From: Asterochloris sp. CNOR1
Taxonomy: Eukaryota; Chlorophyta; Trebouxiophyceae; Trebouxiales; Trebouxiaceae
NCBI GenBank assembly: GCA_963969365.1
Contig: OZ017754.1
Coordinates: 1,922,001-1,986,000 of the forward strand
DNA length: 64,000 bases
Direction of reading: 5' to 3'
Below the pieces are notes generated by a model. The model had not been told where the DNA came from. It saw nothing but the letters and a program-made list of their open reading frames with translations, and searched no databases. Of this stretch, positions 1,684 through 46,380 are shown one piece after another; the first letter of the stretch is position 1, and each line of letters begins with the position of its first letter. The position numbers and the translations under genes were made by a program.

Positions 1684-4600
1684 TTACACATCCCTCTTCA
1701 TGGGTTGGAGCCAAATTCCGTCCTTGGGCATAAGGGTAATGCCAGTGACGTACTCCAGGCTACTGCCGGGGGGGTGCTTGCTGGTGTCGAGCTGAAACGT
1801 GAAGGTCTGGTGCAGCCTGACCAGCGTCAAGATCGCCTCCTGGACGGCAAACCTGCAGATAGCACAGCAGCTGTAGAGGAAGCGGAGCAGCACACAGGTC
1901 TGAGGGCAAAGATGCTGTGCAAGCAAGGATATGGGAGGATTAGCCCAGCAGCACGCAACACACGATGCCTCAGCCCCTGCAGGCTGGCTGCTTGTGGGCT
2001 GATCTGTAGCCAATGCTGCTGTGGGCTGACCTGTAGCCAATGCATTTGTGAGGCCCCGCGCCAAAGGGTATGTAGGCAAAGGGGTGTCTGCTGGAGGGCC
2101 CGTCAGGGCTGTCAGGAAGGAAGCGCTCCGGCCTGAACACCTGCAGGCTCAGGGAGCAACATGCCTCAGCTGCCTGCAGCTTGATGCAGACACAGCCTGT
2201 GCATCAACATATCACCAGTCACTCATGTGGCATGCGGTCAGATCAAAGCCTGCATGCAGTCAAGGCTTGCAGACCAGATGCATGAGGTGAGCTGGCGATG
2301 TTTGTGGCTTTGCAACCACACTCTGCAACTGTGCCATAGCACAATACAGCCAAAGCCCGGGGCAGCTCACCTGTGGCTCTGGGAAGAGCTTCTCGTCATG
2401 GTGCATGCCCAAGACATTGAGCCAGATTCGAGTCTTGGCTGGCACCTTGTACTTGCCCAGCTGCATCGGCTCGCTCAGCTCACGCACCTGCACAGGAACC
2501 CGCAGCGTGCAGAGGCCACCCGGGCCCCCCAAACAATTGCCATGGCTTACCGCGCTCAACTGCATGAGTGCTGAGCTCATGCACCTGCCCAGGGAGATCA
2601 GCAGCGCACTGAGCCCGACAAGACAACCAGGAAACCGTCATGGCATGCTTTAAGACTCCTGCATGGTCCGGTGGGGCCAACATTCACAAGGGGATTTTGA
2701 GCGCAATGGATAGGCTTCCTCATGTTGCAAGCAAAACACGGGCCAGATCTGCCACGCCGATGCAATGTGCTGGAGCCAAATTGCCTGCAGATACGTGCTC
2801 GTTGAGAGACAACATAACACCCTGCAGTCAACTCACAAATGCCACAAGTCTGTCTGAGCTCACTCAGACAGGTCACAACCTGGCCACAGCAACATGCAAT
2901 GAGGGGCTGTGTCAGCCGGCTGCAAAGGCATGCTGACACTAACGTACAGGCTGCACTCAAAGCTCTTGAGGCCTCACAGGCAGTGCCCACCAGTGCAAAG
3001 AGTGGCGTGACTGGTGGGTGCATGCGCATGGCCTCGCTGAAGACGGCCTCTGTGTAGGGGAACTGCTTCAGGTTGTCAAATCCTGGCTCCACAGAGCGCC
3101 CAAACGTATCAACCTCCTTGAGCAGCTTGGCCAGGACCTCAGGGTTGCGTGCAAGCTCAAAGAGAGTGTACGCCAGCGCAGTGGAGGTTGTCTCATACCT
3201 GCACAGCATGGGCAGGGTTGAGGGAGTACAGCGGTGGGCCGTGGCTGCACTGTGGGCTGCATTTGCCAGCTCATATGAAGTTGTGGCCCGCACGGTGCAG
3301 GTCAGCTCCTACCTCTACATCAACTACTCAGGCCATGAGAGGTTGAGCAATGTTGGGCCTGGGTTGCTGGTGAATCTGGGGTGCTTACAGATACATCGCC
3401 AGTGCAAGGGCTGAGGGTTGGCGTGTACAAGGAAACATGCAAAGCGAGGCAGAAGCAGCAGTGCCCCAGCCAGCAATGGCGACCCCAGTTGCACGCTATG
3501 TTCGAGGTCTATTGACATACAACTTGCCTCACCCAGCAAGTAGGAAGGTATTGGCCTGTGCAAGAATCTGCACATCAGTGAGCGGCTGTTGTGTCTCTTT
3601 GTTGATTGTGTTCATGAGCCGCGGGAGGAGGCTGTATTCAGCTGGTACCTGCAGACAGGTCCAGCAGTGCATCCGAGGCACCAGAGCGCTTGAGGGCTGC
3701 ATCTGACCTGCTGCAGAGGGCACAAGACTCAGCAGGCAAAGCCTAGCAGACACGTGTAAGCAGCATGACTGCCACAATCCCCCCGCCCCCCCCCCCCCCC
3801 CTTTCAAAAAGCCTTGGGCATGATGGACTCTGCTTGGTAGGCATCTCTCCAAGGCAGCACACATTCTGGTAGATTGTCACCTCATCTTTGTACTCCTGCA
3901 TGCCCTGGGTGTGGGCCTTCTTCAGCCAGGCATCTGCCTTGTCTGTGAACAGCTTGGCATCCAGCCACTCAAGCCACGTCCTGGATTTCTGGGTCGGCAC
4001 AGGTGCATGTGTAACAGCAGTCCGGGTACTGGCATCCTCTACTGACCCATTGGGGATACGTGTGGCCGGGCGTGCAGCCTTGGAACTGGCACGAGCCTTG
4101 TCCAGGAGGACCTGTATACGAGTCATGCAGCAATTTCGGCCAATACGCATGCATCCAAGGCTGGACCTAGGTTTGGAGTTGCTTTGGACCTCTTCAGCAG
4201 GGCCTGCATGACAGGACACCAGCAGCTTGCGGTAAGATGCATCAACTGGATTATCCGATCCAGCAGCAGCAAAGCCCATGCATATGGCGCCTACATTGGT
4301 CATGTAATGCTGCTAGTGTGAACAGTGATGGCGTGTGCATCAACATCCAGGAGCAATATGGCTCGCATGTACGCTGCTTCGGGAGCTGCTATGCTCACAT
4401 GCATGCTGATTTGGACTGCCACGCCCTTAGCTTGCAGCAGAGCCACCATCAGGCACAAAGCTGGCAGGTGTGCACATCTGAAGTCCCCCGCCTGACATTG
4501 CTCTGTCAGCACCGTTGCCTGCCGGATGGCCCTCAAGGAGCAGCAGCAGAACTAACATCTCTGACTATGTCAAGCTGCCAGTCAAGGGTCTACGCTAGAT

Positions 4601-7159
4601 CTTGGCAGGCAGACACCCTGGGTGGTGTATGAGTCACCTGAGAGGTGCCCTGTATGTAGCCGCGAGCAGAGAGGGCCTTGCTGAGGCGCTCACTTCCCAT
4701 GGCCATGGCCAGGCGGTACACAACGCTTCTGCAGCAGCCAAGTACTGATGTCAGCACCCCCATGAGGAAGCTTAACACTAGACAGCAGATCAGGGACCCG
4801 CATGCAATGAGGCCAAGCAGCAAAGTGCAGCAGTGTCCTTGGAAATGGTCACCACCTGGTGGCCAGACGCCAAGCTTGCAGCATTCAGAATGCAACTCGA
4901 GAGCAGCTTGGAAGCAGATATTGTCTGAGCCAAGCAGCGGTGCAGAAAGGTCGGCCTGCCAAACAGCCATCGCAGCATCTCGCAGCTGCATGCTATGGCA
5001 GCTGTGACGTGGTGCACACTTCCACGATTTACAGCAGAGCACTCTTGCAGCACTCACGACAGAGATGGAAACAGCAGCATAAGTTTTGGCAAGCTGAAGC
5101 CTGTTTTTGATGGCGGTGCTGGCGCAAACACAAACTTGGCATGTTTCACCACCTCTGGAGTCTCAGCGGTCTGTGCATCAAAGTTGACTCTGCAGAGCAT
5201 GAGACGAGGGCTCAGTGATGTGCTTGATTTTAGGATCTCCAGGCTGCAACCATCGTCAGCATCTATCTGATTTTGCAGCTTGCCGTGAATGCAGGATGCA
5301 CGCAAAGGCAACCAGTACCACTCAGGCACCAAGAGCCCTCACAAAGAAGCACCCTGGCCAGCAAGTGGGCGGCAGAGGCAGCAATGGAAAGCGAAGCCTT
5401 CAGTGTGAGACAGACTCCCCCACAAGGCAGGCTGACAGAGAAACAGGTCACTAAAAAGGACAACAGAAGCAGCCCGGCTGTGATTGCAGCACGAGCTAAC
5501 CCAAAGGCAGTCTCCCCAACTATCGTCATGGTCAACCCCGCCATCAAATCGTTGGTGTGCATGCTCTTGGCCCCCTCAGCACCCCCCAGCCTGCCCAGCA
5601 TGGTTGTGACTGCCCGATTCATGACGGCCATATACTGTTCCAGCAGGGATTTGGAGAAGAGGGGCTCGCAGGCAGCCCGCACAGCAGCCCACGTCTTGCC
5701 CCTGCAGGCCATTGAACGGGGTTGGTTGAGATTCGGTGTTTGTCTTGAAGTGGGACCTGGAGGACGGCGCTTGCAGGCCTATTGCATTGCCGCCTGTTCC
5801 TTGCCCCTGCAGGCCAGCAGTAGTCAAGGGGCATTCTCAAATTTAAGGCTTGCACTGATCTGAGCACAAGCACAAGTGAGGCCTTGCTGTATGCTGGCCC
5901 TGCTGTAATACACCTGCAGGCCACACAGCTTGCCTTAAAGCTATGCTGTACTTTGACAGCAACAGGGGTTGCAGGTAGCCAGCACTGCGGCCTGACCTGC
6001 CCTTGCAGGCAGTGCAACTTTGCTTGACACTGCAGTTGAGGTAAGACTGACAGCAAACACAGCAAATCAAGTGCTGATTGCCAAGCAGCTGTGTTCGAGA
6101 TTGAACGCTGGGGTATGCACTGAGCTGAACTTGTGATGACTGTAGGAATGCCAGCTCAAAGGCCCCGACAGAAACTCAACTCCAAGCCATTGTGCCCACC
6201 TCAGCGTCAGCGTGCCTGACAGCTGATACTCCAGTTGCTGCCCATGGCCCATCCTGATGCTTGGCAGAGGCCTGTCATGGGCCTTCATGAACTGCCGTGT
6301 GGACACTTCTCTCACAAGCTCGGGATCTGTAGCAGTTCAGGGCGCTGGGGGTGACTGCGGAGGTATGATGCAAACGTGCTTCTTCTCATTGCTTGGTGCA
6401 GATCAATGTGTGGCAGTGGCTGTGGCTCAGGTGGTATAATCTGACTGCTGGTTGAAGCGTTGTAAAATTGGCACCCTGGTGACCTTTGATCAGCGATGTA
6501 TAACACTGCCAGCTGGGAGGGAGCTGGTGGGGGCCAGCAATGCTCTGTGTTACAAGCACTTGTCAGACATTGTTGCCTAGCACCAGTGTGCAGCCTTTCA
6601 ACAAGTCAGCAATGCAGTTGTCCTTGCCAAATGCAATGGCCTGCATGCACATCAACACTTGCCTGTGACGACAACAATGGCCTGCCTTCCAACGAAGAAA
6701 CGGCAGACTGGGCCGTACTGCTTAGGCCACCTGCAACAGGGCACCAGCATGGGGATTGCAGTGTCTTGATGAGCAAGGCATGCCTGCGTCATCTTTGACA
6801 ATGCTGGTATGTTGAGCTGCCAGCTATGTATACCATGTGCATGGGCATTGGGGTACCCTCCCAGCAAGCATCCAGGCCGTGGCGCTCATTCAGAGGCACA
6901 TCAAGCCAGGAGGGATGGCTGTGAATGTGGAACCTTCATAGAGAAGGGAAGCTGTGGGTAGCTGCTTTGCTCACTGCAAGCAGCTCTTGTGCGTCTCTTT
7001 AGGGTAAGTGTCACTCATGTTGCCCCACAGCCATCTTGGCCTTGGCCCAGGAATGGCTGGCCCAGCCCACCATTGTGAGCTGAAGCCTTTATAGTACAGG
7101 AGTGCAGCACCAATGGTCAGCAGCCCAAGGGCACCTGTAACATTCATTGCATCAATCAT
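1684..7159 (-). CDS. Cytochrome P450 monooxygenase (P450-1)
   Basis: Complete microsomal P450 in about 13-14 exons. It is a haem-thiolate monooxygenase expected on the ER membrane and using P450 reductase; the substrate is unknown. The first exon (ATG at 7159) encodes a hydrophobic anchor followed by the Pro-rich hinge ([12 protein letters not shown]). Later exons: 6730-6663 ([12 protein letters not shown]), 6326-6200 ([12 protein letters not shown]), 5701-5501 (C-helix [12 protein letters not shown]), about 5193-5055, about 4740-4640, 4110-3850, then the I-helix split around AGYETT (about 3640-3530 and 3210-2985). The last also carries the K-helix ExxR (EAMRMHPP). The haem exon 2140-2031 has [10 protein letters not shown] with the cysteine ligand. 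The last exon 1852-1684 ends at TAA. Tail and haem sequence resemble the CYP3/CYP711-like clan, but the family is a guess. Odd points: a GC-AG intron after 6663, and a Pro/Ser/Thr-rich insert exon (4110-3850) before the I-helix. Confidence 0.9.
1993..2046 (-). repeat. 27-bp tandem duplication of a splice donor
   Basis: Bases 1993-2019 and 2020-2046 are near-identical 27-mers. The second contains the 3' end of the P450-1 haem exon and its donor (CTACAG|gtcagc read on the minus strand). The first repeats the same exon end and donor inside the intron. Use of the distal donor would add 9 codons after the haem motif. Confidence 0.8.
3786..3801. repeat. Poly-C tract
   Basis: Run of 16 C after a CCCCG lead-in, within a P450-1 intron. 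Likely length-variable; on the minus (transcribed) strand it is a G-run. Confidence 0.95.
5693..6012 (-). repeat. Degenerate copies of a splice-acceptor region
   Basis: The acceptor of the P450-1 exon starting at 5701 reads (minus) GGCCTGCAG|GGGCAAG. Similar blocks recur upstream in the intron at about 5769, 5797-5816, 5907-5925 and 5995-6012, each a CTGCAGG or TTGCAGG core, most followed by GC-rich sequence like the exon start. Spacing is irregular (about 30-110 bp). Confidence 0.55.
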
Positions 7160-7451
7160 GGGGGTACAGCTGTCAGATCTGCTGCAAAAGTCCAGATTCT
7201 GACAAAAGCTTGTCTCTTCTTGGAGAGCACTTCCTCTTCTTTCTGCAGCTGTGCCCCATGCACCCTCTTCTCTGCCATTCATAGAAAATCTGGAGCTCAA
7301 TTGCCACCAGCACCGTGTGAACAGACAGCTCTTTACCGTCGCGAAGTTTGCTCATCCTATGGCAGCTGAGAAGCAGGCGTCGGCTGCTCAGGTTCGCCTC
7401 TAATACTGTAAGATGGCTGGCATGCATTGGCAAGCGGATTAGAGTTACAAC

Positions 7452-7720
7452 TCACTGCCACTGTCGAGGTCGACGTGACATGAGAGCTGACAGTAGGCAG
7501 CAATGCGAGCCATGTGCTGCCTGGAATCGAGGGTGTCCTCCCAACGTGTCCAGGAAATCTGCACCTTCAGCAAGCTCTTGGTCATCAGGTGCCAGCAGCT
7601 GGAACAAATGGAGCTCAGCTGCAGCAAAGGCTGGCATGAGCTGCTTGAGTTCAGGACCCTTTGAGCAGACACAGGCAGTGGGTGCTTGCCAGATGGTGAA
7701 GGTCAAACACTTCCAGGTGT
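7452..7720 (-). other. Possible small minus-strand exon, unassigned
   Basis: Between the P450-1 start codon and the ORP start, the minus strand has an open frame with amphipathic, protein-like composition (AFAAAELHLFQLLAPDDQ, followed by a Glu/Asp-rich stretch) ending in a stop at 7452. It could be a small gene, an unplaced exon, or chance. There is no homology I can name and no ATG I trust. Confidence 0.2.
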
Positions 7721-7783: not shown

Positions 7784-10643
7784 ATGGAGCTGCAGGTAGC
7801 AGACCCCCTGCGTGATTGGGGCGATCAGGCAGTGGCCAGCACCTGCGGCTACAGGTTTGTGAGCGAGCGTGATCGCCGGGACATTCAGACACAGCGGCAG
7901 GCCATCTGGGACCTGCTAAAGTCCCTGGGGAGCCACCTGCTGAAAGATGGGGTGAGCTCACACACTAGAGGAATTGACTGTGTCATTGAGGACCTCCTGA
8001 AGACTCTGACTTGCCACCTGCTGATGGACATAGTGAGCATGATTCAGTAACTCTACATTGATGCACTGGTGCGAGTGCTGTGTCAGTGTGTTTGCTGGTC
8101 AGCAGGTGGGGTGCTGTGCTACAGTGAGTGAACCATGCACATAGGTTTGGTGCAGTGAACAGACAGCTGTCAGATGCTTTGTGATGCAACCGCAGATGAC
8201 TCCGTGATGGCCTCAGCTGCAGTGAGCTGACAGCAGCAATATGTGTGCTGCAGGTGAATCTGACCAAAGTGAGCCTCCCGATTAGCGTCTTTGAGCCTCG
8301 CAGCTTCCTGGAACGCATAATAGACGGCTGGGTGAGGGACTGGGTGCAGGCCGCACCTAGCTACATGCACTGTGTCCTACACACCATGAGCTGCCGTGCT
8401 GTCATCAGAGCCTGCTATGCAGTCGGCTTCAGAGAAGGTGTCTGAGAGCACTGGCGATGCTGCAGGCTTACTTAGACCTGCTGCAGCTGGCAGCAGACGT
8501 AGCAGATCCAGTGGACAGGTGCGCACTGCTCCCTCAGTGGTGGTTGTGCATGCAGAGGTTCAGCCGGTCGACCCTGCATGCACCTGACTGCACTGCACTG
8601 CGCTGCCTCTGCAGCGCACCTCCTCCCGGTCATGTGCAGCAGCCTCTTCCCTGCCCCTGCAGGATGAAGCTGCTGGTGGCATTTGTGGTGGGAGGCCTCA
8701 GGCGGCAGACCAGCACCCTGAAGCCCTTCAACCCCATATTGGGAGAGACCTTCCAGGCAGATCTGGCAGGCACGCAAGTGTTTGTAGAGCAGATCAGCCA
8801 CCACCCACCCATCAGCTGCTGGCAGGTCACGTGCCCTGATGGCAAGGTGAGCTCAGGCAGCAGTGCAGGTGCCTGTGCTCATCCGTTCACTGCGCTGCTT
8901 GCAGTTTGATTTGTGGTGAGCACACCCATCAGAAGCACTGTGAAGCTTCCGCATGGAGTTCAAGTATCTGCTGAGCCCCACTGTTTGCTGCATGACTTGC
9001 AGCAGCAGTGCTCAGGGTTGCTGTGTACTTTACCCAGCTGCCAGCTTTGTTTTCTGCAGGGCTGAGACCCCTCATGCTGAATGCAGCTCCACTTCTCGGG
9101 CAGCGCCAAGTGGGAAGCTGCGGCCCGGGGGAACTCCATCAGGGGGCAGCAGGCAGGCACCAACACAGCCTGGTTTGCGAGTGACGGGGCAACTGTTACC
9201 TGGCAGCTGCCGCAGCTCCTGTTGAAGGGTGAGCTTGTGACCAGGCCGCCTTGATGTGCACCTGCATGGCTGTATAGATTCTCAACACAGACGCAGGATG
9301 GCACGGGGCATCCGTGTTGGTTTTGAGTGTACATTCTGCATGCTGCGTCACTCTGCTGGACAGCAGATGGGGCCCCAGCCTCAATGCATGACGCCAGCTG
9401 TGCCCACCTGGCCCTGCTGCATAGGCAGTACTGCTGCACATGTTTCACTGTATGTGAACAGATAGTTGCCTCTCTTCTGCAGGCATTCTCTGGGGCGAGC
9501 GCATACTGACCTATTCTGGCAAGGTGCTGTTTGAGGACGTGCAGAATGAGCTCACGTGAGTCGCAGTGCTGGCTGTCGCAAAACCTTGTCACCCCTGGGA
9601 TTAACTGCGCTCTGCTGAAACCACCCAGCTGTGCCCAGCTGTGAGGGTGTGCATTAGCATGAAGCTGGCTGCCTCCTGGGCTGTTTGTGTGAGTCTGGTG
9701 CATGCTCTGCACTGCAACACAGCCTGCTGTCTGGTGCGGGCATCATGCTGCATGACTGCTGGAGAATAATGGCACCTCGCTGTGGTGTCCAAAAGCTTTC
9801 TGGCATGTGCAGGTGTTGTGTGGACCTGGATGCAGCTAAACAGCCTAAAGGGCTCATACCTGCATTCTGGCGCAGCAAAAGGCAAACAAGGCCCGCCCAT
9901 GAGGTGACACTGCTGCCAATCTATGCTTATCTTGTTGCACTTGCCAAGCCATACCTGCTCAGCTTCCCAGTCAGCCCATGACACCACAGCACACTCATCT
10001 GAAGGTTGCACAGAGAACCTGTCAGGGTCCAGCTGTCTGTAGCCCTTGCTCAAGAGCAGGCTGGGCCAACAGGCGCTCTGTCACTGCTCTGCCCACTATG
10101 CCACTGTGACCATGTAGCTGCGCTGCCGTTGGGCTGACATTGCCTGATGGCCCTGCCCCTCCCCCACCCCGTCCCCCATCTTACTGGCACATGCTTTTCC
10201 TGCAGGTGACTGGCGCTGTGCAGCAGGGAGACACTGTGCTGGACACATGCTCAGGGAGCTGGCTCACGCACCTGGAGTGGGAGCAGGGGGTCTGCACCAG
10301 CACAGATGGCCAGAGGCTCTGCCGGGTGTGGGATGAGGCTGCTGCACCTGTGCGGCAGCCTGCAGCACTGGACAAGCCCCTGCCTAGCGACTCCAGATTC
10401 AGGGAGGACTTGCAGGCGCTCAAGGTGTGGATAGGCTCAGGCACACTGTGCCGTGGCTTGCTGGCAGTCCTTGCTCCCATCTAAGAATGCAGCTATAGCT
10501 ACATGCAGATGGTTGCCCCCTTGCTGGATGCCAAGGCTCTGGTGCATCTCTGCCTGCAGAGGGGCGACATTGATGCTGCCCAACAGTGGAAGGGGACCCT
10601 TGAGACCAGGCAACGCAGTGACGACAAGCTCAGACAGTCTTGA
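7784..10643 (+). CDS. Oxysterol-binding protein-related protein (ORP/OSBP)
   Basis: Lipid-transfer protein of the OSBP/ORP family, moving sterols or acidic phospholipids between membranes in exchange for phosphoinositides. Exons seen: from ATG 7784 to about 7952; 8254-8331 (VSLPISVFEPRSFLER, lipid-lid region); 8466-8518; 8663-8846, which carries the family signature EQISHHPP and the KPFNPILGETF block; about 9089-9229 (RGNSIRGQ, WFASDGATVTWQLPQLLL); about 9484-9557 (ILWGERILTYSGKVLFED); 10206-10423 (GSWLTHLEWEQG); and a last exon to TGA 10641-10643 with the usual AQQWKGTLETRQR tail. Phases join cleanly where checked. No PH domain or FFAT motif was seen, so it looks like the short ORP form, but an upstream exon before 7784 is not excluded. 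It is convergent with the tafazzin gene. Confidence 0.9.
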
Positions 10644-10867: not shown

Positions 10868-13347
10868 TCACTCAACATTCTTGCTTGGTGGCAAGACTGG
10901 GTCTGCATCCTTCTTGTCAAACCTCTCCAGGGGGATGCGGTCCAGGTGTGCGCCTTGGTCAGCATTCCCTGGACTGCAGCGCTCAAGTTCCAGCAGGCTT
11001 TGGCGTATGCGAGCAGTGATGTCCTGCCACACCTGCAGGCACTCGGGGCAATGCAATGGCTGCTGACAAGCAAGGTGCCTGCACTGCTTTGTCCCAAGTC
11101 CAGGAGCACCTGCCGCCTCAGTCTGAAGGGGTAAAGTACCGTCACAGGCAGAGCACTTGCAGCGCCACAAAGCTCACCTGAGCTTGGTCTTCACCTTTAC
11201 AATTGCAGCGAGGGGTCAAGTCACTGACGTCTACTGGGTCGCCCACAGTCACTGTGATGAGGTGTCCTAGACGGGGCACAACAGCTTTGCGCGGCATTGC
11301 GTTGCTAGTGCCTGAATGGTAGAAGGGCAGGATGACAGGTGTCCTGCAGATGTAAGGGATGCTCTGTCAGGTTGGATGGGAAGGAGGAGCTGATGCCTGT
11401 ACTCCCCTGCCATCACCGGTGCACCCTCTCTGGTGCAGGCACAAGTTCGGCCTCATGTAACAGCAGTATAGCAGGTAAAAGCAGTACATGGACTTCTGTC
11501 TGCCTGCTGCTGAGGTGCCAGGCAGGCAGGCATGCTGCATTGCACCACCTGCCTGTAAGTGTACCTGCATGAGGCAAAGGTGCAGACAAAGCCAGCAAGG
11601 CTCTGCCTGCCTGGTACTACTGCTTGGTCTATCTCTGCTGCATGCTAGTGTTCAACCACCTGGCATGTGTGCTGATGTAAGATGCCAAGCGACACCCAGG
11701 CCACTGGTACGCGACATGCCATTCAGGCCCCCGCGGGCAAGCCTGAGCTCAGGTCAGGCCAAAGCAACAGGCCAGCCCAAAGCAACAGGCCCACGGGCCG
11801 CACCTGCCCCCGTCCCTTACGGTGTCGCAGATGAGCTTGCCGACGCCCCACTTGCAGGCCCCCAGCTTGCCGCTGTAGTTGACCCGCCCCTCTGGGAAGA
11901 TGTGCAACCAGTCACCCATGGCCACTCTGCGGGCTGCAGTAGCCATGATGGGCTGATGGAGGCCCCAGCCCCTCTCGATGGGCAGCGTCTTGCCATTGAG
12001 GAAAAACTGCCTGAAGGGCAGGGCATGTCGCTTTCAGTCTTAGCTGTGTGTCACCTTCAACACCAAGCTGCCATCCCGCAGCATGTGGCCACTCAGGGGG
12101 ACTTGCCTGCAGGCAGAGCATGCTTTCTTGGTCTTTGCTGTGGCTACACTGGACATCGAAGGCCCCAGCCCCGCTCAGTGGGCAGCGATTTGCCATCAGA
12201 ACGAGTTGCCCAAAGACAGGGGCCACCGCTTTTAGGCTGAGCTGTGGAAATTGTCAAGGTCAGCCTCTGGCCCAGATCTGATGAACAGCTGTGTGATGCG
12301 TCCTTTGAAGGTGGGGGGGAGGGGACAGGTAGCGGCCCACAATGTGATTCATCGTAAACATGGTGGATGCTAGGTTACGTCAGGCCGTTTTAGGTCTGGA
12401 GGCCAGGCCGCTGCAGGCCCTCGCCCCGCCGCGCCCTGCTGTCAAGTGCAGACAGGCGTTCAATACAAATGGTCAGCCCAGAGATAAGCTGCACTCCATG
12501 CCACATGGGCGTTGAGCATCATGCAGGGCCTCAGGGCATAAGCATCAGAGCAGCAGCACCTGCAGGATGCAGCCTGCTGCACACCGGTGAGCCACAATCC
12601 AGCATCACATCCCCATTTGTGACTGCCAACATGATCACAAACATCGCAGGGGACACTCACGCCAGCAGGGGATTCCAGAAGCAGATCTCGCGGGCACACA
12701 GGCTCCAGCGCACGCCCTTGTGCTGGTGCTCAGTCAGGAAATACCGCCACGGCAGCATGGCGCCCAGCACAAAGGGATCATCCAGCGTGCTGCAGGCAGG
12801 AGGGGGCGACTTGGCTGTGCCTGTTCCTGGAAGGGGCCTGCAGATGCACTGGCAGCACAGGGCATGCCACAGCAAATAGGCAAGGGTTGTGCAGGCAGCA
12901 AACTCAAATGCTTGTGACTGCAGACCTCGCTGCTGATGTCATGGAAGGCAAGCTTCCAGCAGGCAACAAGCCCTGCGGCTCGGTGCTGACGTCAGATGGA
13001 AGGCTGCACAGCTGCAAGGCTTGCAATCGTAAAAGTTGATGTATTGCCTCTGACAAAGGCAGCAACTTGCCCCACCTGATGTGGTTGCTGACGCTGACAA
13101 GGCCCAGCCCCGGCTCCCGCTGCATGACATACTTGTCCACCGCCTCCTGATTATGCACCACCACGCTGTTGAGGACATTAAATGTCAGCTTACCCACCAG
13201 TGTGACACCTGCACCCAGTTTATTGGCCAGATTTTGCTGATGCGCGCATATATGTGCGCCATGAAATTGTGCAGTTGGAGCGGGGATCACCTGCCAGGGT
13301 GAATGTCCTCCCGAACTCGCCCCAGGGCGGCCTTGTGATCTCTTCAT
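10868..13347 (-). CDS. Tafazzin-type phospholipid acyltransferase
   Basis: PlsC-superfamily acyltransferase closest to tafazzin, the mitochondrial cardiolipin-remodelling transacylase; plant relatives may also act on NAPE. The first exon (about 13347-13080) carries NSVVVHNQEAVDKYV and ends in SNH. The next (about 12793-12661) continues as STLDDPFVLG, so the spliced product has the HX4D catalytic motif split across an intron. A third exon (about 12029-11821) has the acyl-acceptor motif FPEGRVNYSG preceded by GDWLHI. The fourth (about 11350-11206) has PVILPFYHSGTSN and VTVGDPVDV. The last (11032-10868) ends at a TGA and is acidic/basic. Start ATG 13347 is the simplest choice; the frame is open to 13386. 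No targeting peptide is obvious. Divergent from P450-2. A decayed exon copy lies in the intron at 12095-12226. Confidence 0.88.
12095..12226 (-). repeat. Decayed copy of a tafazzin exon (pseudo-exon)
   Basis: Minus-strand sequence from 12226 down to about 12095 aligns with the FPEGR exon's 5' half at about 12029-11930. Both contain the shared blocks CAATGGCAAGACGCTGCCCA / TGGCAAATCGCTGCCCA and GGGGCTGGGGCCT. The copy is frame-broken and lacks the FPEGR motif. Confidence 0.6.
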
Positions 13348-13659: not shown

Positions 13660-16600
13660 ATGAAGACCTCGTGGCTTCTCGCTGCCGCTGCAGCAGCAGC
13701 TTGGGTGAGGGACATGAGGACATGACAAAGACGCAGTGCCCATGCCAAGTGCCAGCATCTCAGCTTGCTTCAAAGTGCTGCAGATCCTGGCTTACGTTCT
13801 CAACCTCCAGAACAGATGGCGCTTCAGAAACTTCAAGGGCCCAAAGCCAGCCCTCCTGCTGGGCAACCTTTCAGTCATGAGGAAATTGATGACACCAGGT
13901 AAGCTCTGCCTGATCTGACCCTGGTGTTGTCCAAGCTGCCCAGATAACTGACAACAGTGCTGGGTATGCAGTGGCTTACACAAAGGTGACCTCAGCAAGC
14001 TTCCTCTCCCACCATGCCGTTCCTCAGCCATCACCTTGGTTTGTGTCCATGCATGCCTGGCTCTCTGCAGCTATGATATGAGCGTTGCCACTGCTGCAGT
14101 GGGCCCAGGAGTTTGGCCCCATCTACAAGGTCTTCATTGTCAGGCGACCAGTGCTGGTGGTCACTGACGTGCAGCTGGCTCGTCAACTCATGGTCAAGCA
14201 GTTCAAGGTGTGGCAGGCCTGTCGCACTGTCATTGGGCACTCTTACTACTTTTAGTACTGTTGCGTGGGCAGAGTTGTTTCTCCAGCTGACCTCCAAGGC
14301 AGATGCTGTGCTGCTTCCATGGTCCCTGTGTGCAGGCCCAGCCTGTTCCGCCCCTGCCTTGATAACCAGCACACCCGTTTAGCTAGTATCTGCAGGCCTT
14401 CCATGATCGTGGCCGATTTGGCAACAGGCTGCCCCAGGGGAAACGCCTGCAGGCAGAGACATCAGGGATGCTGCCCGCCAGGTGGGCCGTCCTCATTGGT
14501 CCACGTCGGGCTGAGCTCTGCTCTGCTTTCAGCCAGCAAAGGGCAGTCAGCCAGCTGTCTGCGCCGTTCATGTGCCAGTCAGCTGCAGGCGTGGGCGCAG
14601 CTCCTGAGACTGAACCCCGCACCCTGACATTGACACATCGCTAGCAGTCACAATGCTGTCAGACCCAGCCCTGAAGTGCCTGCCTGCAGGGGTGACTACT
14701 GGGCAGCGCTGAGGGCAGGCATTCAGCCCATGTTCCACACTGCCAGCCTGGAGGGGTACACCAGCAGCATCAATAAGGCTGTGGATGTGCTGTCCGACAA
14801 CCTGCAGAGCGCTGCTGAGCGGGGGGAGGTGGTGGACATGTGGAGGCAGCTGGGCAAGATGACCATGCAGGTGGGGCAGCCCTGCTGCTGGGTTCTGGGA
14901 AGTTGGCGTGAACCGCACAATAATAAGAGAGCTCTGAATCTGTGCACGGCCAGGCACCCTGCTGGCCTGGCACCCTGCTGGCATGTTCAGGGCCAGCGGG
15001 CTGATTGCTCACGTTCTCAGCAATTCATGTCTTCTGCTGTCCGATGATTTAGTTTGACAAGCTGTTTGTACTTGCAGGTCATTGGCGCCTCAGCCTTTGG
15101 GTGAGCTGTACCATGAGCAAGGTCAAAGGACAGGTCCTCAAGCGCCCCCCCACATTTCCCTCTCTGCAGCACACCACATGCCCTTTGCTCACAGCCCCAT
15201 GCTTGATAAGCGGCTGCATCAGCCAGCTTTTCGTTCCCATGTTGGACACTCCCCCTGCAGCCTAGAATGCACCTGAACCATGACAGCGGGGTTGGCGTTC
15301 CGCTGTTGTTGGTGTGTTGGACCAGCCACCTTGCAGGCCACATGCATCTGACTCCTGACCTCTGTCAGCAGGGTGGCATTCAACTCCCAGGGCAGCGAGG
15401 AGACCCCGCTAGTGGCAGCCGCCCAGAGCGTGTTCCAGAATAGCCGGGCCAGCGGGTGGGCTGTAGCCGCCATGGTCCTGCCACCTGTGTTCCTGCCCCT
15501 GCTTCGGCTGGGGCAACATTTGTTCCCCAGCAAGGCGCAGCAGGAGATGGAGAGGGCGGGCAGCATGCTGTGGAACACCAGCCTGGCCCTCATTGAGGTG
15601 GGCCCAGTACACTGCAGCCGTGGGTGCGTGCCCTGCTGCACCAGCCTAGCTCTTGTTAAAATGCCGCCAAGCGCCTGCAGTGCTGCCGTGCAAATCTGCA
15701 ATGCAGCCGCGGCACCTGCAACAGTGGACCCACAGCTTAGCTCGCATCGAAGTAGGTGTTTTTCAGGATAGCTCGGCTCTCATCCAGCTAGGCCCCTTCC
15801 CCTGCAGCTTTAACACATTGCACAGGAATGGCAGAAGCCCAGCCCTTGTGGAGGTGTTGGTGCCAATCTGCTGTGTTGCAGCTGCTGCACTGTGGGCCAC
15901 CAGTGACATGACTCGGCACTGCAGCTGTTGCTACGCTCCAAGTGCAACAGCCTAGCTCTATTGGCCGTGGGCCCCCCGGGCCGACGGTGCAGCTGTTGTG
16001 TAGCAGCTGCTTCATCGCATGCTGTGGAGGTTTAGTATCGCCCTCATAGAGGGGTCACCCTCCACTCGCAGTGCAACCGTGGCTGCGCGCAGCTGAGCCT
16101 GAGAGCCCCCAGGAGACTAGGGATGGCACTCATATGCAAGCACAGTGGAAGATTAAGGGACACAGGCTCCTGCTGAGCCACTGCACTTGCTGCTTTGAGG
16201 TCACTGCTTTCAGGACAGCATCAAGCCTTGTGCCATCTTCCAAGGGGGTGTAGCTTAGCTCACCTGCTGCACAGTGCATGCCCTGCAATGCCTGACACCT
16301 GAGTGGCAAGACCAGCCGCTGTGCCTGTATTCAGAACGCAAGGAAGCACCTGGACCTGGCCTCTGCAGCCAGCAGCCGCAAGCTGCTGTCTGACTGGGAC
16401 TGGTTGAAGATTGACAAAGACAACGAGTACAGGGTGAAGGTGTGCACAGGCACCTGTTGCTTTGTTGCCTGTGAAAGCTGCATTCTGTGCAAAGCATGGC
16501 GCTGAGACAGGGCGGCCCTTGAATCAGTGGCTGTGCGTATCACAGGCAAGCTGTGCAGGATGCATCGACCAAGGACAGGGCGTCCATCTTGCCCTGGCTG

Positions 16601-29554: not shown

Positions 29555-32500
29555 CTAGCACACTGTTGCAATGACTGCCATGAGAGATGCCAGGGCTGAA
29601 ACGCTGAGCACAGCTGCACTTGCTGCACTGCTTGTGGTGGAGCTCTTCGTGCTGGTGGAATTGCTGCTACTGCCAGTGCCGGCGCTGCCAGCACTGGTGG
29701 TGCCATTGTTGCTGACCACAGTGGTGGCGCCTGCAGGAATAACAGGAAAGTGGTAAGCTATGAGACGGTGCATACCGTGTCCATGCAGCCCCCAGGTGCT
29801 ACACAACAAGCCAGGTGCAACAGGATACTGGCAGCTGCACATCAAGGGTACAAGTCTGCCCACACTCCGGTACCCATGTATCTCCAAGGTGCCCAGCTTG
29901 CAGTGGCTGCACGCATGACCAGGGGTCATGACCCGGGAGCTTACTTGTGGTGAAATCTGGCAGATACCAGGGCACTAGCCCCAAGCCTGTGGGGTATGTG
30001 GTTGTGTTGCCCACAAGGAAGCCTATCTTTGCCCAGTCCATGTTTGCCCAATCTGAGGACACCAGCCCACCGCTGCAGGCAAGAAGGGGTGCAGGTGAGT
30101 GCTTGCGTGCATTTGGTGGTGAGCAGGGCAAAAGGCATGGCAGCATGTCATCCTTCTCCCTTGGTTGGTAGATATAGGGGGCATCCGGCATACGCTTGAG
30201 TGGCAGGTGCCAAGGCAGCACATCTGCACCCAGCCTGCAAGCTCAGTGGTGCTGTCCCACTCTGTGCCCGACTGTACAAGTGGCCTACTTGCCTGCCAAA
30301 GGTGGAGTCTGCATCTGCATCCCATGCCCATTGGAAGAAAGACGTGATGGGGTTGTGCACGCCATCATTGGCAGCACCCTCATCGTTCATGTACAGGGCC
30401 AGACTGGCTCCAAATGCCTGGTCACCCTGCAGGCCAGCACAGACATGATGGCATGCTGCAGGAGGCATGGCAGCGTGCACAGCAACGCGTGGCCAACCTG
30501 CAGGCCATCACAGTGTAGCACTTCTGATGGCATGCTGCAGGAGTTGAAAAGTTTTGCAGCTTGCACTTTGGTGCTTGATCAGCCTGCAGGCCAGCACAGA
30601 CGCACAGCGCTGATGGGATGCTGCATCAGGCATGCAGGGTCTGGCCACTTTCACGACATCCCTTGTGTCAGCCTGCAGGACAGGAGAGTCAACCTGTCAC
30701 ATCAGGCAACTGCAGGTAAAGGTGCAGTGCTGTAAGCTTGCTAGAGAGGGGCCTGGACGGCCTGCAGGATGAATGTTGGACATCTCATTGCATGCTGTGG
30801 GAGGTGCCGGGGCCAAGGGCTAGCAACCTGGCCACCACTGGCTCTGTGCACAGGGTTGCTGTCCCCTCACATGGCAATTGCCATGAGTGGCACCCAAAAT
30901 GAATGGCCACACTTGCAGGACTCACCGCCTCGCCAAGGTTGAGGTTGAACTCCCCAATGACAATGGCAAACTGGTGGCAGGAGCCGCTGCCACAGTAGCC
31001 CTTCTTGTTGTATGCGCCAAATGAGCGGGACATTCTGCGGCAGGGACGGAGCAGCATGAACAGGTGAGCCAGCGGGTGGGGGCAGAACAGAGCTGCATGA
31101 GCAGACAGCAGACTGGACCACGCCGCCTGACTGGTCCGGCGAGTCACCCTTGCAGCTTGGCTGCTGCTGCTCCATGCCATACTCCACCGCATCTGGACTT
31201 GTGCTCACCGTGTGTACAGGGCAGCGCCGGAATATGCGTATGTGGCCTCTGCAAAGCACAGCAGGATGAAACATGGGAGGGGGCACCTTATCAAGCGGGG
31301 AGATATGCCCAGCCACAGCATCCAGCTGCGACCACTGCCCCATATTGAAGCTGACAGACAGCAGCCACATGCTGTGCAGCACCCTGATGATCCAGAACAT
31401 CCGACAGCACCCACATCAGCTCATGCCTGCTGATCCACACAATGTCAAGGACTCCACTTTGCCATGGAGCATTGAGATTCGCAAAGTTGTGCCAATTCAG
31501 GCAGCCTGCATGACTTGCAGCGGCCTTGCGGTCTGCAGGAGCTCACGTGTGACGCTGGGCCCATACAGGTGGGGGGCCAGCACAACCTGCTGCAGGTAGG
31601 GCTTGGCCAGGAGGGCGTTGAAAAACAAGATGGGGGTGGAGTAGCCTGAGGGCAGGCCCGAGTCTGTGGCAAAGCCATCGCCATAGTTGGCAAAAATGGG
31701 GGAGCCCACCTGCCCTGCAAGCAGCAGGCTTCTGTGGGTCAGGGGTCTGGTGAGCAGCACGCCGCATGCGCCCCCACCTACACAGGGCCTGTCAGGGGCA
31801 AGGCACATGGGCAGTCTGGCAGGGCAGAAGCCAAGCATGCATCCTATGGAGGCCTGTGCCCTGCACCAGGCACGGGAACGCAGCACTGCTGACATCGCCA
31901 TTGGCATGAGCATGACGTGGCACATGAACATACACACAGATGCGTTTCAAATGCAGACGCCTGCATGATGCAGGCAGACAGGGGTGACCAGGTGTGCCCT
32001 GCACCAGGAAGAGGTTCCATAGGGCATAGCAGCTCAAAGGGGCTCTGGATGCACACAACAAGAAGCGGACACCAGAGGAGGCAGGAGCGCCAAGGCTGAG
32101 GCACAGGGCAGTACAGACAGGGGTGGGTACCTGTGCCCTGTACTAGGAAGAGGCATGAATTGCACATTGGGTACATGGCGTCCATTGCGCTCAAGTAGTA
32201 GCTGGAGACAGGGTCAGGCAGGTCGCTGCTGGAGTCCCACAGACCGTTGTATGCATCTGCAGGGGCACAAACAGCTGCTGTGAGGCACCTGTGGGGCACT
32301 TGAGGTGGCATCTGGACACTGCAGAGACTGCAGGCTGCACGCTGCAGCTGTGAGGCAGCTGTGGGGCACCGTATCAGGCGCTTGACTGCTGATTGCCGGG
32401 GTGCACACAGCAGCTGTGCAGGCACTGCATGCACTTGGGAGGGCCTTGGAGCACTGCAAAGTGCGCGGCGGCTTTCAAGCGGTTAAGGCTGAGCCTGAGC

Positions 32501-38031: not shown

Positions 38032-40378
38032 TCAAAAGCCATTGAGGTCATCTGCGATGGTGCTGTCTGGCACAATTCTTGCCAAGTCCTGCAGTTGCCC
38101 CCACATGCTGCCACCCAGAGACGGGCTTGGCAGGCGGCCTGCACAATGCCCTTAGCTAAGACAAGAGCTGTAGCAGTCAGCAGCAATACTGCTGACTTTC
38201 ACACGTGCTGCACTGCCTGACAAGCTCAACAGCTCTGGATAATTGCTGCAGCAGGCCTTACCAAGGATGCACTGCCGCAGGACGGGCATGCTGGCTGCGA
38301 CAGCATGCCAGCACCCAGCAGCGACCTCCTGCTCCAGCTGCCCTGGGCCCCACAACGAGGAGCCGGCCAAAAGATGGAAATCTGCAGCCTGAGCGTGGCC
38401 TTTCTGCACCAGCACATTTGCATGCTGCAGGCCGCCAAGGCGCACATCCTGCAGTGCAAGCACAGCAAGAGCGGCTTCATCTTGCTGCCCACGCTACACA
38501 GCTGAAAGGGATGTCTCCTCTAAAAACACAGGTGGAAGTCTGCAACCTGGGCGTCATGGTTTTGGACCAGCTCATCTGCATGCTGCAGGCTGTCAAGGCA
38601 CGCATCCTGCATGTCAGAGGCAGCAATCAAAAGCAGAGCTCTCCCAGCTCATCTGTGTGATGCAGGCCACTTGCACACAGGACCAACACGTGAGGCAGCA
38701 TACTGCCCTTCACACCTCATCTATATGCTGCAGGCTGCCGAGGCATGCACTGTACATGGCAAGCCCAGCATTGGTGCCTCCTCCTTACAGCTCACGCCCT
38801 CACGCATTTTGAGGGAAGGCATCTTTTGCTGAGAGGCAATCAAGGCCCACAGTCTGCATATCCTGCTGTCTGCCTATTGCTGGGGCCACACCTGGCACAG
38901 CATGGCATCGCCATCTTCAAGTCGGAAGCGCAAGGGGCTATGCACAATGTAGAAAGAAAAGCTGTGCTTCATGGACTGGTCAGACCGTTTGCAATGTCTG
39001 CCTGCAGGGGCCTCATTCCACCTTTTTTCAAGGCTTGCTGAGTGTGCTCAGCAGGCTATGTGAAGTCAACGCTCAGGATGCACATGCTGCAGCCTTCCAT
39101 CAGACTTCCACACCCAGCAAGCTCTGCAGAGTCGATGCTCAAAATGCAGTCGCTGCAGCACCTCATCACAACCAACTCCTTGACATTGTCTCGAGAAAGC
39201 AGAATGAGGCATTTGCCTGCCTCTGATAGCCACAAGCCAGGGAAGAGCATTCCAGAGAGCGCCACACTTGTCTTTGTCAACAATCCAGAGGGAGAGTGTG
39301 GCACCATGTTGCCTGATAAAGCTGATCAGGAGCTTCAATGGCAGGCACAGTCAGTGTCCAGGATGGGAAACTTGCCTGCAGCACCTCGTGAGACTCCCAG
39401 ACTGCATCTTGCGAGTGCAACGTCCAGAGCTCTCTGGGGTTGCAGGGGCCCCCAAAGTCGACCTGATGGTACTGAAAGTGCTCTGCAGCACATGTGAGAG
39501 GCTGACACCAGCCACAGACCCTGACAGCAAACCCCACGAGCTTGACTGGCTGGTCTCACAGGCACTGGGGCTCACCTGACAGCTCCAGGTCCACAAGTGC
39601 ATGTCTGATGAGGTCTGAGCCACGCCTGTTCAGCACCAGCCCCATCGAGCCTGTGGCATCTGCACAGGAGCAGCACATCCCTCTGCACAATGGCCTGGAA
39701 GCCCAGCCACACACCAGCATCACACAAGAAATGCAAGCCTTCTGTGTACTCCTGTCTGCTGGTGCCGCAGCCAGCCTGCCTTCATGCGATCTGTTACAGG
39801 GTGTGCGGGGAAGTTGGATGCAGGTGCTGGCATGGTATACGGACGGCGTACCATGCCAGGTAATCAGGACCACTGAGCCAATGAAACAGTCCATGTCCTC
39901 CTGCCTGCTGATGAGCAGGCAGCCATGCTCAATGTGGCCCAGGCGGTGCGCCCAGAGCAGGTCAGGGGCCCAGAGGGGCTCCTGAGTGACAGCTCTTGAA
40001 GCTGCCATCTCTTGCGTCAACAGCTGCGCCCGCACACAACGCCAGTCCTGCACACATCCGGTGCCAGTCAATGACTGTGGCTGCGCTTGTGCTGCCAATG
40101 GAGCAGGGCGCTCCTCAGTCAGGCTGCCACTTGTGCAACCGACATGTGCTGCCAGCAGCAGATGGTCCTGCAGCAGGCTTGCAGGGGCCTGTCCATCTAC
40201 AGCGCACCTTTGCCTGGCCAGGACTGGCCTGCTTGCTCCGTGCTGCCGCCAGCCTGAGCTCACGCTGCATGAGGCGCAGCAGGCTGTCAGTCAACGAACA
40301 AAGTCTGCGTGGCAGCCCTTGCCTTCTAGCAACGCACCAGCAGTGTGCTCTGTGCGCGCTGTGCTGTGTGCACATCAT
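38032..40378 (-). CDS. AlgH/UPF0301 family protein
   Basis: Eukaryotic (plant/algal) member of the UPF0301/AlgH family, of unknown biochemical role, probably plastid or mitochondrial. Exon 1 (ATG 40378 to about 40213) has a Cys/Arg-rich leader that could be a transit peptide, ending at donor AAG|gtgcgc. The next (about 40056-39857) starts DWRCVRAQLLTQEM and has IEHGCLLISRQEDMDCFIGS, then SVVLITWH. The next (about 39655-39575) has DATGSMGLVLNRRGSDL, the family LNR signature. Then VDFGGPCNPRELWTLHS (about 39500-39385; the GGP..LHS motif), LGGLQHANVLVQKGHAQAA (about 38465-38375) and SSLWGPGQLEQEV (the GWGPGQLE motif). The last exon ends at 38032 with WGQLQDLARIVPDSTIADDL. The phase across each visible splice fits the family order. 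Extra degenerate exon copies occur in two introns (separate entries). Confidence 0.82.
38369..38770 (-). repeat. Duplicated AlgH exon copies
   Basis: The GG-L-x2-A-x2-LV exon at about 38465-38369 has a clear copy at about 38620-38528 (SLQHADELVQNHDAQVADFH) and a partial third at about 38765-38720 (SLQHIDEV then a stop). Period is about 155-160 bp. Only the first continues into the WGPGQLE block, so it is taken as the functional exon. Confidence 0.75.
39048..39172 (-). repeat. 68-bp tandem repeat related to the AlgH GGP exon end
   Basis: Two units start near 39048 and 39116 (AGCAGGCTATGTGAAGTCAA / AGCAAGCTCTGCAGAGTCGA) and each runs through CTCARRATGCA and GCTGCAGC. Part of each resembles the exon end near 39375 (CTGCAGCACCTCGTGAGACT), so they look like further copies of that exon border. 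Confidence 0.5.
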
Positions 40379-43643: not shown

Positions 43644-44070
43644 CTGTGTTGAGAAGGAGGAATCCTCAAAAATCTGGGCCAAAAGCGCAGAAGGCACATG
43701 ATGTCCACGGTAAGGGGCAGCACTCTGGATGCCAAACGGGCGCTTGAGAGCAGGACAAGGTGCCAAGGCCACCAGCTGCTGTCAGCGCAAGCCCCAGTGC
43801 AGGTCACTCACGCTGAGCCAAACGATCAGTCTCTGCCCTGTGCTGTGGTGACGTCTGCTCTCCAGCAGAGCTGGACATGGGGTAGAAGCTGAGCACAGGC
43901 TGACCAAAACTTCTCCGTTCCACAATGGGGGCGTCCAAGCTCTGCCTTGCTGATGCTGAAAGCCAAAAGGATGCCACGGAGGAGTGGGCTGTGCTCCACT
44001 ATCTTTCTTCCTATGGGTTTATATTCCTTATCAAAGCGATTTGTTGAGGGTAACTGAAGCCACTTCAGAC
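43644..44070. promoter_or_regulatory. Divergent spacer RING-CH / mARC
   Basis: About 430 bp between the two start codons. The RING-CH frame stays open on the minus strand to about 43772, so part may be coding. An A/T-rich patch near 44000-44045 (TTCTTCCTATGGGTTTATAT) precedes the mARC ATG and could be core promoter. Confidence 0.4.
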
Positions 44071-46380
44071 ATGGCAGACACAGTGAAGATCTCAAGCCTC
44101 AACATATACCCAGTCAAAGGCTGCAGAGGCATCAGTGTCTCAAAAGCCAGCATTGGGTCCACGGGCAAGCTGGAAGCCTGTCTGCCACTCCTCAGCACCC
44201 TTCCTCTAACTTGCAGCATCTGACATGGTATGCAGGCTTCCTGTACGACAGGAATTGGATGATAGTGTTGGCAAAGAATGGCAAATTTCAGAGTCAACGA
44301 AACATACATAGGTACTTCCATGCTGTTGCTCCCTGTGCATTGCCAGAAATGCCTCACAGGAGGTCATGCTTTTAACATTGCTTCAGGCTGAAGCTGTTCA
44401 CCTGTGAACAGCTAATGGCTCAGTCCATTTCCTGTGACGGTTGCAGAATGGCCTTGATTGAGGTCCAAATTCCTGAGGAGGCCTTTCTGGCTGACGCGCA
44501 GCTGGCACACGATGCCAATCTCACCCTGCAAGCCCCAAGCATGGTGCCTCTCAGAGTAAGGAGAAATTGAGCTGAGATGGAGGGCTTGTTGTGTCCACAT
44601 CAGCACTTAGACCTCTGCAGCAGCACCTTCATGTCTGCACAGTTGTAAGGGCTACCACTGGTGCCAAGCAGTGCAGCAAACCTGTATGAGGTGCTGCCTG
44701 CCTCTCCGCTCAGGCCCACTGGCCACTAATGCTGCAGGCAGTGCTGCACGTTGGTGGGCTGCAAGTCTCCTTGCTGTGTTGCAGGTGCTTCTTAAGCCCA
44801 AGCAGGGAGGGGCATGCCCCATCAGCCAGTCAAAGTGCCAAATTTGCAAGAGTGCCTGGTGGTTGTGCAGTTGGCCCTCAGCTGCAGGCAGGACTACAGA
44901 CCAGTGGGGCTCATCTGCTGGGAGTAGCAGGGGCAAGTTGCAACAGCCAGCCACAGCACTGCAGCTGGCACCAGTATCTCTAGGAGCTGAGGTGCCTTGC
45001 CTGATGTGGTGCAGGTGCCTCTCAGGCCCCAGCAGGAGGACAAAGTGGTGGAGGTGATTTGCTGGGAGTGGCAGGGCAAGGCTGCAGACGCAGGGGATGA
45101 GGCTGCTGCCTGGTTGACCAAATACCTGGACAATGGGAAGGACTTCAGGCTGGTCAGGTACTCAGGTGAGGTTTGAGGGTGCACGGCCTGCCAGGATGGA
45201 TCAGCAACAGCTTCAGGCTGGGCACGCGGTCAGGTGACGCCTTCACCTGCACATGCTGGAGAGGACAGCTGCAAGACCAAAAATTGCCAAGCATGGAGAG
45301 CCTGGGCCAGCTGAACACCCTGTCTGTGCCTCCAGCGTGCAGCGTGGCAGGCTACAGTCCAGCTGCATGCCTCTACCTGTGAACATGCGCTTGCTCTGGG
45401 GCTGCAGGCAATGCAGAGTTCCGTTCTAAGCCTGCTGGGGCCACTCGGCGGTCTACTGATGCCAAGTGGGCCCCAGACAGCGAGACAGCATTCTCTGACG
45501 GGTTCCCGATCCTGGCCATCTCAAAGGTGTGCCTTGCTGCAGAGCACTGTGCATGCTGAGCACCCAGCTTCAGTGTCCGGGGACAGCATGTGTCACTAAG
45601 ATTGCCCTTTCTGGACGGCACATCTCTCCGCCCGCAATGCTGTGCCATATGCACTGCTTGGATGCAGCTCAAGCCTCTGCACAGTACGTCTGGCTGCACT
45701 GTCTGCCTGCCATGCAGCGTGAATTCTTAGGAAGAACCCAGACGACTGCCAAATCCCAACATGTCTGTCCTGGCTGCAGGCGTCCCTTGATGACCTGAAC
45801 AACAGGCTGGAGGATCCCCTGCCAATGAACAGGTTCCGGCCAAACATTGTCCTTGATGGCTGCTCAGCCTGGGCCGAGGACGGATGGGAAAGCTTCACAG
45901 CCGGCACTGCAGAGGGCAGCTCCTTGGGCCCAATTGACTTTGCGCTGGTCAAGCCTTGCGACCGGTGTAAGGTGGGTGCATCTGAGCCGCATGCTCCCTT
46001 AGCTTGTGGCCCTGACAGTGCTGCATCAACAGCTTGTGCTGCAACTGCATAGCATGCTCAAGTGGCACATCGCCTGGCCAGTGACAACCCCTCAGATGGC
46101 TGTGCCCCTGGGCAGCTCAAAGTTGCGAGTGCAACTTTTGAGACTCCATGCGCAGGTCACCACCATCGACCAGGCAACAGCAGAGTCTGGCCAGGAGCCC
46201 CTCAAAACGCTGAGCACCTTCAGGGCTGGTCACCTCCTGGGCTGGGGTGCGCTTCCTAGCTGGAAGAATGCAGTCTTTGTGGGTTGGAATTTGTGCACCA
46301 AGCAGGCTGGCAGCTTGGCTGTGGGGGACAGCATACAGGTCACAAAAAAGCGCACACAGACCCCGCAGCGTGTATCCTGA
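44071..46380 (+). CDS. MOSC-domain protein, mARC type (molybdenum amidoxime-reducing)
   Basis: Molybdenum-cofactor enzyme of the mARC family, which reduces N-hydroxylated compounds with cytochrome b5 and its reductase. In Chlamydomonas the family member makes NO from nitrite with nitrate reductase. Seven exons join in phase to 317 aa: 44071-44164, 44236-44311, 44447-44543, 45015-45165, 45408-45526, 45780-45971, 46156-46380. The N-terminal MOSC_N barrel has LNIYPVKGCRGISVSKA and LYDRNWMIVLAKNGKFQSQR. The MOSC domain has WEWQGKAADAGDEAAAWL, RFRPNIVLDG and ALVKPCDRCKVTTID, where the CDRC cysteine is the expected Mo ligand. Intron 1 uses a GC donor. Intron 3 begins with the same 11 bases that begin exon 4, so the boundary is ambiguous by microhomology. 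Its second half is repeated as a pseudogene at 53.4-54.2 kb. Convergent with P450-a. Confidence 0.93.
44780..44945 (+). repeat. Decayed copy of mARC exon 4 (pseudo-exon)
   Basis: GTTGCAGGTGCTTCTTAAGC at 44779 matches GGTGCAGGTGCCTCTCAGGC at exon 4 (45009), followed by CCAAGCAGG/CCAGCAGG. Later, ATCTGCTGGGAGTAGCAGGG at about 44913 matches ATTTGCTGGGAGTGGCAGGG in exon 4, but with an in-frame stop (TAG for TGG). The copy is stretched by an insertion. Confidence 0.7.

What the first reader, a model, noticed from the sequence alone, without database searches (positions are those of the whole stretch)
1993..44945. Recurrent intronic copies of neighbouring exon edges across many genes
In P450-1, tafazzin, P450-2, SAM synthetase, the GH5 gene, AlgH and mARC, introns contain decayed copies of the adjacent exon border together with its splice site. 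Copies range from one 27-bp tandem unit to about six degenerate units. Seen directly: matching blocks such as CTGCAGGTGGCCTGCRRRAG in SAM synthetase. Known: tandem duplication containing AG|GT can create introns or alternative splice sites. Inference: this genome may have an active local process (replication slippage or repair synthesis) that copies exon-intron borders and lengthens introns. It would also explain why CTGCAG is so frequent in introns.
Basis: partly seen in the sequence, partly recalled or inferred. Interest (0 to 1): 0.75.

Follow-up and report, generated by a model that had tools for sequence, protein, structure and literature searches.

The report
Tandem duplications crossing exon-intron borders
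Many introns of this green alga hold worn copies of the neighbouring exon's edge because short stretches of DNA have repeatedly been duplicated side by side; duplications that happen to cross an exon-intron border do no harm to the protein and stay recognisable, so no special border-copying process is needed.

Summary
In 314 kb of this genome, 39 of 460 tested splice junctions match a stretch of their own intron, against 2.5 expected from other genes' introns. Six of the seven named genes show it clearly; P450-2 only weakly.

The copies look like remains of local tandem duplications (offsets 28-274 bp in 27 strong cases). Some are arrays: 46 bp x4, about 110 bp x4, about 145 bp x4. Simulated random tandem duplication plus neutral decay roughly reproduces how far copies reach into exon and intron.

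A process aimed at borders is not shown. Duplications wholly inside introns and in intergenic DNA are similarly dense (0.26 and 0.22 per kb). Introns are short, so random duplications often cross a border. Young duplications show no border preference (5 of 21, 6.7 expected). Old ones do (30 of 38 at D>=60), but this falls to 18 of 25 (p=0.07) without three repeat-protein genes. A shortage of young border copies stays unexplained.

CTGCAG is frequent mainly as the 3' splice consensus in CpG-poor DNA. No RNA data or related genome was available.

The parts
1993..2050 (-). P450-1: 27-bp tandem duplication across a donor site (true donor at 2030/2031); the intronic copy reads AT where the true site reads GT
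2473..2593 (-). P450-1: acceptor-border copy, offset 97 (2473-2496 / 2570-2593)
   Evidence: (p=.015)
5661..5992 (-). P450-1: acceptor-border copies, offsets 105 and 303
   Evidence: (p=.002, looser gene model)
7909..8038 (+).
11960..12196 (-). Tafazzin: copy of the exon start (first exon base 12010) at 12160-12196, offset 200
   Evidence: (p=.0005)
15580..15808 (+). P450-2: weak donor-border similarity, offset 190
   Evidence: score 17; p=.03 for a different copy in one model
20640..20870 (+). Phosphatidylserine synthase: donor-border copy about 164 nt into intron 20681-21450; approximate limits
   Evidence: p=.015
25522..25645 (+). SAM synthetase: copy (25522-25560) of acceptor and exon start (25607-25645), offset 85
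26794..26957 (+). SAM synthetase: duplication inside an intron, offset 142, 95% identical; example of a non-border duplication
30413..30634 (-). GH5: array reaching an acceptor border, offsets 71, 86, 157
31855..32153 (-). GH5: copies of an exon end, offsets 138-139
38402..38858 (-). AlgH: copies of the exon edge at 38448: 38542-38626 (score 69), 38725-38770 (36), weak 38644-38668 (25) and 38827-38858 (22)
44772..45086 (+). mARC/MOSC gene: acceptor-border copies, offsets 144 and 230
45143..45237 (+). mARC/MOSC gene: donor-border copy, offset 68
   Evidence: (p=.005)

Best explanation
Random local tandem duplication, seen through a filter. Units of a few tens to about 250 bp are duplicated side by side throughout the genome (shown as a pattern; slippage or end-joining as cause is inferred). 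A unit that crosses one exon-intron border puts a second exon edge and splice site into the intron. The protein is unchanged as long as the site next to the intact exon is used: the upstream donor or the downstream acceptor (inferred). The intronic copy then decays neutrally, while the exon is held by selection, so exon-derived parts remain easier to recognise than intron-derived parts. Repeated events give degenerate arrays and longer introns.
For: Own-intron matches 39 of 460 junctions vs 2.5 expected. Local direct duplications: 218 hits vs 1.6 expected at distant offsets; direct matches exceed inverted ones below 200 bp. Regular arrays: 46/93/139 bp; 110-115 bp with intron-side homology; 152/298/430 bp in a ribonucleotide-reductase gene whose first copy matches without gaps from -68 to +41. 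Copies reach the junction in 15 of 21 donor and 33 of 34 acceptor hits, as contiguous duplications must; simulation gives 0.80. Simulated exon columns median 34/30 vs observed 32/24, intron columns 13/12 vs 6/15. Similar density in introns and intergenic DNA, no border preference among young loci. Mismatches by codon position 87/67/117 fit a neutral copy plus synonymous exon change (77/72/122, my own rough expectation). Copied splice dinucleotides not conserved: GT 6 of 15, AG 9 of 15, against 10.6 and 11.8 expected. Exon-exon duplications are in frame in 13 of 16.
Against: Intron-side similarity was not significant in 18 of 27 strong cases. Among loci with offset >=60 the old border share is 30 of 38 against about .53 simulated (p=.0016); without three repeat-protein genes 18 of 25 (p=.07); counting one locus per gene, class and age 21 of 29 (p=.04). 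A simulation with offsets 20-250 gave border shares .41/.46/.51 from young to old, observed .24/.69/.71. High-scoring (>60) border hits are 6 of 55 observed but over half in the constant-rate simulation: young border copies are too few. In-frame stops in copies: 2 seen, 7-8 expected.
Confidence: 0.82

Rival explanations
1. A process aimed at exon-intron borders (for example transcription- or splicing-linked repair synthesis) copies border segments into introns.
For: Border loci outnumber expectation in the older classes (20 of 29 and 15 of 21 against 12.1 and 10.7 under random placement); junction hits exceed intron-interior hits at score >=36 (8 and 13 of 230 against 3 of 190 in each of three interior tests).
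Against: No excess in the young class (5 of 21, 6.7 expected). Excess not significant after removing three repeat-protein genes (20 of 31 overall, p=.28; old 18 of 25, p=.07). Intergenic DNA has the same kind of duplications. Arrays have regular spacing with intron-side homology in several cases.
Confidence: 0.1
2. Templated insertions during break repair paste short non-contiguous copies of nearby sequence into introns.
For: 18 of 27 strong cases show no significant intron-side similarity; SAM synthetase has one isolated 39-nt block.
Against: Exon-only copies that stop short of the junction are rare (6 of 21 donor, 1 of 34 acceptor hits), whereas pasted pieces should often lie wholly within the exon. 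Regular arrays need tandem events.
Confidence: 0.15
3. The copies are missed or alternative exons of proteins with internal repeats.
For: Three genes (81139-87575 with CTFxP-like repeats, 138035-144359, 208168-214876, in the stitched coordinates) give 16 of 40 border loci. Stops in copies are fewer than expected (2 vs 7-8).
Against: Copies also occur in SAM synthetase, ribonucleotide reductase, P450, AlgH and tafazzin, where the uninterrupted protein is conserved without them. Codon-position pattern fits neutral copies.
Confidence: 0.15
4. Chance similarity driven by the splice consensus and the CTGCAG/GCAGC vocabulary.
For: CpG observed/expected is 0.39 and CTGCAG is the commonest hexamer; 3' splice consensus CTGCAG|G.
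Against: Introns of other genes share the same vocabulary and give 2.5 hits where own introns give 39.
Confidence: 0.02

Closest known systems
Internal gene duplication crossing exon-intron borders (Gao & Lynch 2009, PNAS; not held here; known to me from citations in PMC3443670 and PMC4974935 and from recall)
   Same: Short tandem duplications within genes that carry splice sites along; described as common in eukaryotes (cited in PMC4974935, passages seen).
   Different: Here most copies are decayed and silent inside existing introns; no new intron was shown.
Intron gain by tandem duplication of an AGGT segment (Rogers model; PMC3443670 section 8 read, passages)
   Same: Tandem duplication that includes a splice-like motif.
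   Different: That model predicts that donor and acceptor contexts of the same intron match; found in 1 of 230 introns, 0.21 expected.
Potato RdRp case: tandem duplication of an existing intron/exon structure (PMC4974935, passages seen)
   Same: The duplicated unit spans an existing intron-exon border and carries its 3' splice signals; the same gene also has an 83-bp tandem duplication within an intron.
   Different: There a new spliced intron resulted; here the copy appears as dead intron sequence.
Introners (PMC9860276, only the search listing and start of abstract seen)
   Same: Introns marked by recognisable repeated sequence.
   Different: Here copies match only their own gene's border, not each other across genes.

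Membership tests
Tandem genomic duplication across an exon-intron border | Local direct, not inverted, similarity at a fixed short offset | tested here: met
Tandem genomic duplication across an exon-intron border | The duplicated unit is contiguous across the junction (exon and intron parts at the same offset) | tested here: inconclusive
   Significant intron-side similarity in 9 of 27; clear in several arrays; the rest compatible with decay by simulation
Tandem genomic duplication across an exon-intron border | The ancestral single-copy state exists in a relative | not testable with these tools
   No relative genome is held for this assembly
Intron gain by AGGT duplication (Rogers) | Donor and acceptor contexts of the same intron are copies of each other | tested here: not met
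   1 of 230 at score >=28, 0.21 expected
Introner elements | Near-identical copies as introns of many unrelated genes | tested here: not met
   Border copies match own introns 39 times vs 2.5 for other genes' introns; the SAM synthetase block has two exact places in the genome, both in that gene. No general introner search was made.
Border-directed copying process | Border duplications exceed random placement among recent events | tested here: not met
   5 of 21 young loci vs 6.7 +- 1.9 expected; small sample
Functional alternative splice sites | Copied GT/AG kept beyond neutral expectation, or used in RNA | tested here: not met
   GT 6 of 15, AG 9 of 15, against 10.6 and 11.8 expected; RNA use not testable

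The most novel reading that the evidence does not exclude
Junction-crossing duplications really are over-represented in this alga: an earlier burst of duplication linked to exon-intron borders, now slowed, built a good part of its introns and seeded them with decoy splice sites. This would explain the excess of old border copies, the shortage of young ones and the low number of in-frame stops.
Probability: 0.12. Interest if true: 0.6.

Novelty: new member of a known kind. Interest (0 to 1): 0.35.

Why it matters
It shows how an ordinary mutational process can look like a border-copying machine: short introns, units about half an intron long, and one copy frozen by selection. It gives a simple way to see old duplications, since exons serve as preserved templates, and a census design (young versus old, border versus inside, random-placement null) that can be run on any annotated genome to ask whether introns grow by tandem duplication. 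If the leftover excess of old border copies holds in a whole-genome test, it would point to a time-limited intron-growth episode.

Tried and rejected
Chance from splice-site vocabulary: rejected by own-versus-other introns. Dispersed element or introner: rejected for these copies. Rogers-type intron origin: 1 of 230. Conserved decoy sites: not supported. Whole tafazzin and AlgH tests failed at first because of missing exons in the gene models and were redone by hand. The first gene-finder run over-split genes; penalty 1.5 was chosen because it returned a complete SAM synthetase, and penalty 0.5 was kept as a second set. A rigid-offset identity profile suggested that only exon edges were copied; scans with several offsets showed arrays that the rigid profile had misread (for example 46 bp x4 taken as one copy at 139). 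A first simulation without offset matching under-predicted old border loci. Literature: six searches, two of them with no result; none listed a report of this pattern in a green alga, but the library lacks most subscription papers. Not done: comparison with other algae, RNA evidence, whole-genome census.
Full report
The window is bases 1,922,001-1,986,000 of contig C9 of a 56.4-Mb, 21-contig assembly without held relatives. The best named relatives of a predicted phosphatidylserine synthase are chlorophyte algae (Nannochloris, Picochlorum, Symbiochloris among the best 120 of 235 hits listed), so a green alga is likely. The DNA is CpG-poor (observed/expected 0.39). Since no annotation or RNA exists here, I wrote a two-strand HMM gene finder and trained it on the sequence itself.

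Is it real? Yes. With 230 introns in 314 kb, 17 donor and 22 acceptor junctions match their own intron at score 28 or more, against 0.85 and 1.64 expected from introns of other genes. At 36 or more it is 8 and 13 against 0.00 and 0.05. Queries taken 60-120 nt inside the exon give 2 and 1, near expectation. Intron-interior queries also exceed expectation (7, 7 and 9 of 190 at 28 or more, against 1.41, 1.29 and 0.54), which shows that local duplication is not confined to borders. Reverse-complement queries give 3 and 6 against 1.26 and 1.52, a small excess that I did not explain.

The named genes. Clear: P450-1, tafazzin, SAM synthetase, GH5, AlgH, mARC. Weak: P450-2. The 27-bp P450-1 unit keeps one working donor: the intronic copy has AT in place of GT. 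AlgH has two clear and two weak copies rather than a proven six.

What are they? Offsets in 27 strong cases run from 28 to 274 bp, evenly spread over the three frames (9, 9, 9). Several introns hold arrays: 208318-208670 has copies at 46, 93 and 139 bp; 141375-142225 has copies at steps of about 110-115 bp with shared intron-side sequence; the ribonucleotide-reductase intron 279058-279720 has copies at 152, 298 and 430 bp, the first matching without gaps from 68 nt of exon to 41 nt of intron (coordinates beyond 64000 are in the stitched sequence). In 9 of 27 cases the intron side is significantly similar, in 18 not. Copies reach the junction in 15 of 21 donor and 33 of 34 acceptor hits. Simulated random tandem duplications, decaying neutrally with the exon held back, give similar reach into exon and intron.

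Is it aimed at borders? A census that looks at ungapped local duplications (offset 12-400) finds 218 hits where 1.6 are expected, in 122 loci, 10 of them in poorly modelled genes and set aside. Of 71 intron-touching loci 40 involve a border; random placement predicts 29.5 +- 3.8. By identity: >=.88, 5 of 21 (6.7 expected).78-.88, 20 of 29 (12.1); below .78, 15 of 21 (10.7). Intergenic density is 0.22 per kb and intron-internal 0.26. With offset >=60 a matched simulation predicts about .54 in each age class; observed 4 of 10, 15 of 18 and 15 of 20. Sixteen of the 40 border loci come from three genes for repetitive or low-complexity proteins, where missed exons can pose as copies. Without them it is 20 of 31 (p=.28 against .54), and 18 of 25 for the old classes (p=.07). 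Keeping one locus per gene, class and age gives 25 of 39 (p=.26), old 21 of 29 (p=.04). So a weak excess of old border copies cannot be excluded, but recent events show none.

Unexplained. Border loci are short of young members: only 6 of 55 hits score above 60, where a constant-rate simulation gives more than half. The copies also carry fewer in-frame stops than expected (2 against 7-8), although mismatches by codon position (87, 67, 117) fit neutral copies. Either the process has slowed, or some copies are unrecognised exons.

CTGCAG. Of 1153 sites in 314 kb, 648 are intronic and 235 lie at predicted 3' splice sites. Leaving these out, introns still have 3.53 per kb against 2.70 in intergenic DNA and 1.70 in exons. 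Third-order composition predicts 556 of the 648 intronic and 220 of the 240 intergenic sites. Duplication loci hold 114 of 1153 sites in 6.4% of the DNA. Copying is thus a minor contributor.

Verdict. A real, well-supported pattern with an ordinary cause: frequent short tandem duplication, made visible at exon borders by short introns and by selection on exons. The principle is known from work on internal gene duplication and on intron gain by tandem duplication (PMC3443670 section 8 read; PMC4974935 passages). What could still be new is the amount and the age pattern in this genome.

Noticed in passing
window 46730-51749 and 54466-59176, minus strand: Two neighbouring P450 paralogues or fragments with near-identical exon sequences, apparently a local gene duplication.
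   Followed up: no
264-kb stitch (window + L009-L028): Exact 12-mer matches, direct and inverted, peak at distances of about 1-26 kb, suggesting a clustered repeat family.
   Followed up: no
314-kb stitch, predicted genes: Splice signals: donor with G at +3 in 81% of predicted introns, acceptor CTGCAG|G; CpG observed/expected 0.32 in introns and 0.51 in exons.
   Followed up: partly
stitched 81139-87575 (L009-L011): Gene for a repetitive protein with CTF(A/S/K/T)P-like motifs whose introns hold many exon-like pieces; may contain unmodelled exons.
   Followed up: partly
314-kb stitch, exons: Local duplications within exons are a multiple of three in 13 of 16 cases, as selection would require.
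   Followed up: yes
   Followed up: partly
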